The notes under the pieces were generated by a model. The model had not been told where the DNA came from. It searched no databases and worked only from the letters and a program-made list of their open reading frames with translations. This document shows, piece by piece, positions 27,851 to 29,326 of a stretch of 54,643 bases of DNA. The DNA is from Phycisphaerae bacterium (GTDB lineage: Bacteria > Chloroflexota > Anaerolineae > 4572-78 > J111), in NCBI GenBank assembly GCA_028285035.1, contig JANQQF010000031.1, forward strand, positions 1 through 54,643, read 5' to 3'. Made by a program: the position numbers and the translations under genes. How positions within the stretch are numbered: position 1 is the first letter of the stretch; every line of letters begins with the position of its first letter.

Positions 27851-28003
27851 ATGAGTAAAAACAAAGCAGGTTTACCAACAAAAATGTGTCCCGTATGTCA
27901 ACGGCCCTTTAGCTGGCGAAAAAAGTGGGCGCAGCACTGGGATGAGGTCAAATATTGCAGCGAGCGCTGTCGACGCCGCCGAAATGCGATAGCTAATGAG
28001 TGA
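27851..28003 (+). CDS. DUF2256 zinc-finger-like small protein
   Basis: This 50-residue protein has the full DUF2256 pattern: MCPVCQRPFSWRKKW, then a WDEVKYCSERCRRRR end. The four cysteines (CxxC and CxxxC) probably bind one zinc ion, and the tail is Arg-rich. DUF2256 genes are frequently found beside or fused to photolyase/cryptochrome genes. Here the stop overlaps the next gene, a photolyase-like FAD protein, by eight bases, which fits that partnership. Its molecular role is not established. The frame can be read further upstream, but the conserved part starts at this ATG. Confidence 0.88.
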   Translation: MSKNKAGLPTKMCPVCQRPFSWRKKWAQHWDEVKYCSERCRRRRNAIANE

Positions 28004-28874
28004 GCAAAACAGCAAAACATCGATGCGACGGGACTTTGCCAGCCGTGAGGATTTGATCGCCTATCTCAAAGCGCAGTTTCCAGAGGCCGCAGAGCGGGAT
28101 GAACACATTCCGACGACTGTGGGTGGTCGTCAGGCGGCTGAAGCAGCCCTACAAAAAATCGAGCCTGAACATTATGCCAAAACCCGGAATACGCTGGATG
28201 GGGCGGTGACCTATTTGTCGCCCTACATTCGGCACGGGGTGCTTAGTCTGGCCGAGGTACGTGATACGGCCCTGTCGATGGTTCAGCAGCCAGATCAGGC
28301 CAGCAAATTGGTGGCGGAGTTGGGCTGGCGGGACTATTTTCAACGGGTCTACGATAAGCTGGGCAATGGCCCATGGCAGGATCGGGAGCCATACAAAACG
28401 GGCTTTTTGGCAGAGGCCTATGCCGATGAGCTGCCAGAGGATATTCGTGAAGGTTCAACGGGCTTGGCCTGTATCGATGCCTTCAGCCGGGAATTGGCCG
28501 AGACAGGCTATCTGCACAACCACGTCCGGATGTGGCTGGCGGCGTATGTGGTGCACTGGCGGCGAGTGAAGTGGCAGGCGGGAGCACGCTGGTTTTTGAC
28601 CCATTTGCTGGATGGAGATCCGGCCAGCAACAATCTGTCTTGGCAGTGGGTGGCCAGCACTTTTAGCCACAAACCCTACTTTTTCAATCGGCAAAATCTT
28701 GAGCGCTACAGCGATGGGCGTTACTGCCAACAATGCCCGCTGCTGGGCCATTGCGACTTTGAGGGTGAGTATCCACAGCTTGAGCGCAAACTTTTCCCTA
28801 ACAAGCCACCCAGTGAGCCGGATCGTCGCGGGCAAGGTAAAGGTAAAAAGCGACGCAAGCGATTGCATCAATAA
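27996..28874 (+). CDS. Short photolyase-like protein: FAD-binding domain only, no antenna domain
   Basis: The 292-residue protein consists of just the helical FAD-binding/catalytic domain of the photolyase-cryptochrome family. It shows TYLSPYIRHGVLS, ELGWRDYFQRVY, CIDAFSRELAETGYLHNHVR, MWLAAYVVHW and GDPASNNLSWQWVASTFS. The normal N-terminal alpha/beta domain of about 130-200 residues is missing; the protein begins a few residues before the helical domain. A Cys cluster (CQQCPLLGHC) follows near the C-terminus, then a very basic tail (RRGQGKGKKRRKRLHQ) that could bind DNA. It is probably light-dependent DNA repair or sensing. It overlaps DUF2256 by eight bases, and the separately encoded alpha/beta domain follows 14 bases after its stop. 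Confidence 0.85.
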   Translation: MSEQNSKTSMRRDFASREDLIAYLKAQFPEAAERDEHIPTTVGGRQAAEAALQKIEPEHYAKTRNTLDGAVTYLSPYIRHGVLSLAEVRDTALSMVQQPDQASKLVAELGWRDYFQRVYDKLGNGPWQDREPYKTGFLAEAYADELPEDIREGSTGLACIDAFSRELAETGYLHNHVRMWLAAYVVHWRRVKWQAGARWFLTHLLDGDPASNNLSWQWVASTFSHKPYFFNRQNLERYSDGRYCQQCPLLGHCDFEGEYPQLERKLFPNKPPSEPDRRGQGKGKKRRKRLHQ

Positions 28875-28888
28875 TGAAGGGCTATCAT

Positions 28889-29326
28889 ATGAACCACACA
28901 AAAACCATTGTCTGGGTCCATGGGGACTGTCTCAGCCCCAACGGACCTGCCCTGCAAGCCTATCCCGATCATCCAGCTATTTGGGTGTGGGATGATGAAC
29001 TGTTGGCTCAGTGGCAGATCAGTCTCAAGCGCATTCTGTTTATGTATGAATGTCTGCTTGACCTGCCGGTCGAAATTCGGCGAGGGCGAGTCGCCGAGGA
29101 ACTTGCTGCATTTGCCCAAACACACGAGGCGCGGGCGATTGCTACCGTCGAAAGCCCCAGCCCTTTGTTCAAGGTGATTTGTCAAACGCTGCGTGAGCAA
29201 GGTTTTGCGGTCGAAATTCATCCGATTGAGCCATTTTTGGATTATGATGGACATTTAGATTTAAAGCGCTTTTCACGTTATTGGCGGGTGGCTCAAAACT
29301 ATGTGTTTGAGATGACAGATCGTTGA
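28889..29326 (+). CDS. Stand-alone photolyase-type alpha/beta (antenna) domain protein
   Basis: The 145-residue protein reads like the N-terminal Rossmann-like domain of photolyases. It starts TIVWVHGDCLSPNGPAL (compare the usual W-F-R-x-D-L-R-x-x-D-N-x-A-L), then AIWVWDDE, KRILFMYECLLDL, a P-x-E-x-x-R-G strand-turn, and ends with FSRYWRVAQNYVF. No FAD domain follows; that domain is the preceding gene. The two products together would make one complete photolyase in swapped gene order. Start at 28889 is preferred because AAGGG lies seven bases upstream; ATG at 28874 would overlap the previous stop by one base (TAATG). Assembly into a two-subunit enzyme is inferred. Confidence 0.7.
   Translation: MNHTKTIVWVHGDCLSPNGPALQAYPDHPAIWVWDDELLAQWQISLKRILFMYECLLDLPVEIRRGRVAEELAAFAQTHEARAIATVESPSPLFKVICQTLREQGFAVEIHPIEPFLDYDGHLDLKRFSRYWRVAQNYVFEMTDR

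What the first reader, a model, noticed from the sequence alone, without database searches (positions are those of the whole stretch)
27851..29326. Split photolyase: FAD domain and antenna domain as separate genes in swapped order, with DUF2256
The gene at 27996 encodes only the helical FAD domain of the photolyase family, and the gene at 28889 encodes only the alpha/beta antenna-type domain; normally both are in one protein with the order reversed. With DUF2256 overlapping the first by eight bases, the three form one tight unit. The FAD protein also has a Cys cluster (CQQCPLLGHC) and a very basic tail. A two-subunit photolyase or a light sensor that joins and separates is possible.
Basis: partly seen in the sequence, partly recalled or inferred. 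Interest (0 to 1): 0.75.

Follow-up and report, generated by a model that had tools for sequence, protein, structure and literature searches.

The report
Two-gene photolyase with domains reversed
This stretch appears to encode a light-driven DNA-repair enzyme whose two halves come from two neighbouring genes in the reverse of the usual order; the same kind was already reported in marine cyanobacteria, so this is a further example, with new signs that the two halves belong together.

Summary
27851-28003 encodes DUF2256; 27996-28874 a photolyase FAD domain alone ("short photolyase-like", SPL) with four conserved Fe-S-type cysteines; 28889-29326 a photolyase-type alpha/beta domain alone ("ANT" here). 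ANT hits no Pfam family itself, but the other 18 of 19 aligned relatives hit PF00875, and the 50 listed Foldseek matches of its model are all photolyases or cryptochromes.

SPL and ANT travel together: all 9 SPL-positive genomes of 201 Chloroflexota have ANT (10 have ANT), and the same 22 of 117 Cyanobacteria have both, 7 of them with the genes unlinked. Natural one-chain proteins exist, FAD domain first (120 of 120 listed); one models as a confident whole (pTM 0.91). Best reading: a two-subunit photolyase, probably for cyclobutane dimers. Nothing was tested at the bench.

The kind is in print: Haney et al. 2022 (phr4/phr5, fused phr6); Mella-Flores et al. 2012 suggested a heterodimer. Not met in my paper searches: the spread to Chloroflexota, Deinococcus and Actinobacteria, spacing data against the published frameshift alternative, uracil-DNA-glycosylase fusions, and DUF2256 tracking Fe-S-type photolyases. 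A light sensor that joins and separates has no positive support.

The parts
27851..28003 (+). DUF2256 small zinc-finger-like protein, 50 aa
   Evidence: PF10013 E 1.2e-22; placed in the cysteine-coordinating TRASH clan by PMC4047054 (one passage)
27996..28874 (+). SPL: photolyase FAD domain alone, 292 aa, Fe-S-type cysteines 159/244/247/253, basic C-terminal tail
   Evidence: PF03441; four cysteines, E108, W111, N175, M179; alignment to class I photolyases
28889..29326 (+). ANT: photolyase N-terminal-type alpha/beta domain alone, 145 aa (150 aa if it starts at 28874)
   Evidence: Relatives hit PF00875; fold matches; 676 homologs at E<=0.01
29384..29410 (+). Strong hairpin after ANT, possible end of the transcript; only a short T run follows
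   Evidence: MFE -19.4 kcal/mol, z -3.96 for 29372-29425; not listed by the terminator scan
31915..33471 (+). PF04244-type (FeS-BCP-like) photolyase; a neighbour, not part of the pair
   Evidence: PF04244 E 4.5e-76; FeS-BCP, DUF2256, SPL and ANT lie together in three other Chloroflexota genomes

Best explanation
SPL and ANT are the two subunits of one photolyase. SPL holds FAD, very likely a [4Fe-4S] cluster, and the lesion-binding and catalytic residues. ANT is the missing alpha/beta lobe; it docks on SPL, perhaps through its conserved C-terminal helix, rebuilds the two-lobed photolyase core in trans, and may hold an antenna chromophore. Light excites reduced FAD, directly or through the antenna, and FAD passes an electron to the lesion, which splits. 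The likely lesion is the cyclobutane pyrimidine dimer (about 0.65 against (6-4)), with (6-4) lesions left to the FeS-BCP-like enzyme downstream. Shown by computation: domain identity, fold, conserved cysteines and catalytic residues, co-occurrence, natural fusions in one order. Inferred: dimer formation, cluster, chromophore, substrate, light dependence.
Against: No interaction was measured or predicted for the separate window chains. In Haney et al. E. coli carrying phr4/phr5 gained UV-C survival, but equally in light and dark, and neither the phr4 mutant nor the E. coli clone showed an effect with UV-B. The literature says short photolyases (NewPHL/SPL) repair CPDs (passage), and I recall that Rhodococcus fascians SPL repairs CPDs on its own, so ANT may be dispensable. 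Haney et al. predict (6-4), not CPD, repair. One Chloroflexota genome (G079) has an ANT-like gene and no SPL at E<=1e-35. The pLDDT comparison is confounded by alignment depth (19 rows against 64). Whole-model Foldseek TM-scores of the fusion are low (0.28-0.45 by query length), as expected for reordered domains, so lobe orientation is not proved.
Confidence: 0.75

Rival explanations
1. SPL repairs DNA by itself; ANT is a loosely attached, optional antenna or stability factor, or has a role of its own.
For: Short photolyases without this partner are described as active (passage; RfSPL recalled). Prochlorococcus has a FAD-domain gene without the other half (passage of PMC3441193). An orphan ANT-like gene exists in G079.
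Against: Co-occurrence of SPL with ANT, also unlinked, in both phyla sampled; fusions.
Confidence: 0.15
2. Programmed frameshifting joins the two ORFs into a single chain (the alternative offered by Haney et al. for marine Synechococcus).
For: Fixed spacing in marine Synechococcus and one-chain relatives.
Against: Gaps between SPL stop and ANT start run from -4 to 4441 nt, with relative frames 18, 13 and 22 in 53 pairs; 7 of 22 cyanobacterial pairs are unlinked; in the window ANT has its own starts.
Confidence: 0.03
3. A light sensor: the two proteins join and separate with light and signal, without repairing DNA.
For: Separate chains allow reversible association. A PAS/GAF-looking sensor kinase ORF lies 4.4 kb downstream (33712-35286; read by eye, not searched), with nothing linking it to the pair.
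Against: Catalytic-site residues conserved, frequent fusions, fusions to a DNA-repair glycosylase domain, UV-C sensitivity of a phr4 mutant.
Confidence: 0.05

Closest known systems
Phr4/Phr5 (split) and Phr6 (fused) of marine Synechococcus and Cyanobium, Haney et al. 2022, PMC9426592 (abstract, passages, sections 5, 8, 9 and part 1 of 10 read)
   Same: Two adjacent ORFs, FAD domain first and alpha/beta domain second; fused relatives in the same order; four cysteines with spacing 85/3/6 (their C169, C254, C257, C263; here C159, C244, C247, C253)
   Different: [quoted passage not shown] DUF2256 overlaps SPL here and is not mentioned in the parts read; host probably Chloroflexota
Short photolyase-like (SPL) proteins, Xu et al. 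2021 (paper not seen; cited in passages of PMC9178010 and PMC9498864)
   Same: FAD domain without the N-terminal alpha/beta domain (SPL definition recalled)
   Different: The parts of the literature seen do not connect SPLs with a separate alpha/beta partner, except through Phr4/Phr5
NewPHL / Phr7 (Emmerich et al. 2020, recalled, not held; described in PMC9426592 and PMC13274461)
   Same: FAD domain at the N-terminus, inverted topology; closest relatives of Phr4/Phr6 in the published tree
   Different: Short C-terminal Z-domain and no Fe-S cysteines, according to PMC9426592
FeS-BCP / prokaryotic (6-4) photolyases (PhrB, CryB; the window's own at 31915-33471)
   Same: Fe-S-type cysteines; ANT shares a GD-x-L-x-P stretch with the window's FeS-BCP N-domain (hhalign E 0.003 but probability only 10%); CryB is the top fold match of ANT
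   Different: One chain in the normal order with a PF04244 N-domain

Membership tests
Cryptochrome/photolyase family | FAD-binding helical domain (PF03441) | tested here: met
   E 1.4e-27
Cryptochrome/photolyase family | N-terminal-type alpha/beta domain | tested here: met
   In a separate protein: PF00875 in 18 of 19 relatives but not in the window's own; fold matches
Cryptochrome/photolyase family | Light-driven repair or signalling with bound FAD | not testable with these tools
   Needs protein
Short photolyase-like (SPL) | FAD domain without N-terminal alpha/beta domain | tested here: met
   PF03441 only
Short photolyase-like (SPL) | Four conserved cysteines (some SPLs; recalled) | tested here: met
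   Window, and 120 of 120 separate (the window's own included) and 115 of 120 fused relatives
Phr4/Phr5/Phr6 | FAD domain gene followed by alpha/beta domain gene; fused form in the same order | tested here: met
   Window order; fusions in 120 of 120 listed
Phr4/Phr5/Phr6 | Cysteine spacing 85/3/6 | tested here: met
Phr4/Phr5/Phr6 | Direct sequence kinship to RS9916 Phr4/Phr5 | not tested
   Those named sequences were not fetched; separate cyanobacterial relatives of SPL and ANT are 60-70% identical
NewPHL/Phr7 | No Fe-S cysteines (PMC9426592) | tested here: not met
   All four cysteines present
FeS-BCP | PF04244 N-domain in the same chain | tested here: not met
   SPL lacks it; ANT's own sequence does not hit it, 2 of 19 relatives only at E 0.24 or worse

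The most novel reading that the evidence does not exclude
The photolyase fold works interchangeably as a true heterodimer and as a circular permutant across phyla, with ANT an obligate subunit that keeps an antenna pocket; and DUF2256 is a so far unrecognised accessory (for example Fe-S or cofactor maturation) protein of Fe-S-type photolyases. DUF2256 is in 42 of 45 cyanobacterial genomes with SPL or a PF04244 photolyase against 9 of 72 without, and in 13 of 16 against 0 of 185 in Chloroflexota, one weak hit (G023) left out.
Probability: 0.3. Interest if true: 0.6.

Novelty: new member of a known kind. Interest (0 to 1): 0.42.

Why it matters
If the two chains assemble in trans, a two-lobed enzyme tolerates both splitting and reordering of its lobes. 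That bears on whether the antenna lobe was added to a short ancestral photolyase, a view discussed in the literature (passage). The natural split, fused and glycosylase-fused forms make it testable. The DUF2256 association gives a first functional handle on a family that only two papers of the library mention.

Tried and rejected

Fused/separate tree (88 rows: every third listed fusion, every fourth listed separate protein, 13 chosen loci, the window, 4 outgroups): 7 changes of the fused label on the drawn tree, but well-supported branches force only 1, and the outgroup and some rows sit on long branches. Repeated fusion or fission is likely but not shown. Promoter scan: 7 found against 6.2 expected. 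DUF2256 neighbourhood: among the 44 DUF2256 loci fetched (all 14 Chloroflexota hits, 30 of 51 cyanobacterial hits; mostly about 1.5 kb each side) 4 have an FeS-BCP hit, 3 of them with SPL and ANT; two more have only a weak SPL-query hit, 24-26%. Outside the fetched loci, G315 has DUF2256 29 nt before a PF04244 gene.

Left out of counts: G234 (hit in a 451-aa ORF, taken as an ordinary photolyase) from the cyanobacterial SPL set; G023 (weak DUF2256 hit, E 6.9e-4) from the Chloroflexota DUF2256 set. Kept in: G256, whose PF04244 match is partial (E 9.1e-8). L013's genome was not held and so not searched.

Full report
What is there. Three ORFs on the + strand form a tight unit: DUF2256 (27851-28003), a 292-aa FAD-domain protein (27996-28874; overlap 8 bases) and a 145-aa alpha/beta protein (28889-29326; an alternative start at 28874 overlaps the preceding stop by one base). 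A strong hairpin follows at 29384-29410. 2.6 kb downstream lies a PF04244 (FeS-BCP-like) photolyase, preceded by a DUF427 gene. The host was not given. Named close relatives of SPL (P0125, P0140, P0194; 71-72% identical) suggest Chloroflexota; that is an inference.

They belong together. A genome scan with ANT found 259 relatives, of which the best 80 were kept. In 52 of these 80 loci an SPL gene lies upstream on the same strand. With the window added, 43 of 53 pairs have a gap between -20 and +200 nt. A few of the other 28 loci hold little upstream DNA (for example L014 and L037, under 300 bases). For the whole-genome draws I took G001 (the genome of L005, a Chloroflexi bacterium) and G003 (the genome of L001, Microseira wollei) as centres. 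Among 201 genomes of the first phylum ANT was found in 10 and SPL in 9 at E<=1e-35; all 9 have ANT, and in 7 the two matches lie within 40 nt (positions). Among 117 of the second, ANT was in 22 and SPL in the same 22 (G234 dropped, see Tried and rejected). In 12 of the 22 the matches are within 163 nt, in 3 within 2 kb, in 7 unlinked. Fisher P values (8e-15 and 3e-24) ignore kinship between genomes and are only indicative. As a contrast, PF04244 photolyases occur in 10 of those 22. Nine genomes chosen because they hold ANT, four of them with no SPL near ANT in the locus held (L002, L007, L022, L047), all have an SPL.

Natural fusions. In plasmids ANT was found in 4 records, all Deinococcus, all also with SPL. 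In three both domains lie in one annotated protein; in the fourth the genes overlap by 4 bases. A protein search with one fusion gave 1558 hits; all 120 listed carry SPL first and ANT second, the aligned parts 2-42 residues apart. The list is biased towards fusions by the query, so it shows order, not frequency. Named sources include Deinococcus, Dermatophilaceae and Candidatus Promineifilaceae. Four of the 120 also carry a C-terminal uracil-DNA-glycosylase domain. A fusion close to the window (P0302; SPL part 68%, ANT part 59% identical) models with pLDDT 89.5 and pTM 0.91. Its SPL part aligns with 1owl/1qnf 181-475, complementary to the N-domain region matched by ANT alone. The high pTM says that the model is sure of the arrangement of the lobes; I could not superpose coordinates to show that it is the classical one, and sequential aligners cannot show it for reordered domains (TM by query length 0.28-0.45).

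Mechanism. Cysteines 159, 244, 247 and 253 are the only ones in the protein and are all kept in 120 of 120 separate relatives (the window's own listing included) and 115 of 120 fused ones. Their spacing equals that given for RS9916 Phr4, whose authors assign them to an Fe-S cluster. Residues aligned with the class I CPD active site (equivalences read, roles recalled) are kept: E108 in 119 and 118 of 120, W111 in 120 and 116, N175 in 120 and 120, M179 in 109 and 112, separate and fused. This favours CPD repair. Haney et al. favour (6-4) repair, from the cysteines and the UV-C phenotype. The question is open.

What is in print. Haney et al. 2022 (PMC9426592; abstract, passages, sections 5, 8, 9 and part 1 of 10 read) describe adjacent phr4 and phr5, the fused phr6 and the reversed domain order, and note the same phr gene complement in Nostoc punctiforme. 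They report a phr4 mutant with 20-30 fold lower UV-C survival and no UV-B effect, and an E. coli clone protected from UV-C equally in light and dark. They offer heterodimer or +1 frameshift as alternatives. Mella-Flores et al. 2012 (PMC3441193; passages) had suggested a heterodimer. The window is therefore a further member of a known kind. The spread of spacings and frames (18, 13 and 22 of 53 pairs) and the unlinked pairs speak against frameshifting as the general rule. In some searches I found no paper on the split or fused SPL-ANT pair outside cyanobacteria, on the glycosylase fusions, or linking DUF2256 to photolyases; the library lacks most subscription papers.

DUF2256. It is mostly not next to these photolyase genes, but it tracks Fe-S-type photolyases: 42 of 45 cyanobacterial genomes with SPL or PF04244 have it, against 9 of 72 without; in Chloroflexota 13 of 16 against 0 of 185, one weak hit set aside. 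Kinship and genome size were not corrected for. I did not check the Fe-S cysteines of each PF04244 gene. In G001, G103 and G207 the order is FeS-BCP, DUF2256, SPL, ANT. A role in maturing these enzymes is a guess worth testing.

Noticed in passing
P0276, P0278, P0279, P0282: SPL-ANT fusions with an added C-terminal uracil-DNA-glycosylase domain (PF03167, E 1.8e-13 to 9.2e-17): two DNA-repair activities in one 688-709-aa chain.
   Followed up: partly
G000-less phylum draws: DUF2256 co-occurs with Fe-S-type photolyases (42 of 45 against 9 of 72 Cyanobacteria; 13 of 16 against 0 of 185 Chloroflexota).
   Followed up: partly
window 31424-31921 and 31915-33471: A DUF427 (PF04248) gene overlaps the start of the PF04244 photolyase gene by 7 bases.
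   Followed up: no
L158 4906-5805 and L159 5124-6152: In G151 and G175 the ORF between SPL and ANT begins with alike-looking protein (shared LPARR stretch, by eye); identity not determined.
   Followed up: no
L157 2063-2524 (-): An ANT-like gene (33% identical) in G079, a Chloroflexota genome where no SPL was found at E<=1e-35; its partner, if any, is unknown.
   Followed up: partly
window 24448-27756: A 1102-aa protein with BNR/Sortilin-type repeats directly upstream of the unit.
   Followed up: no
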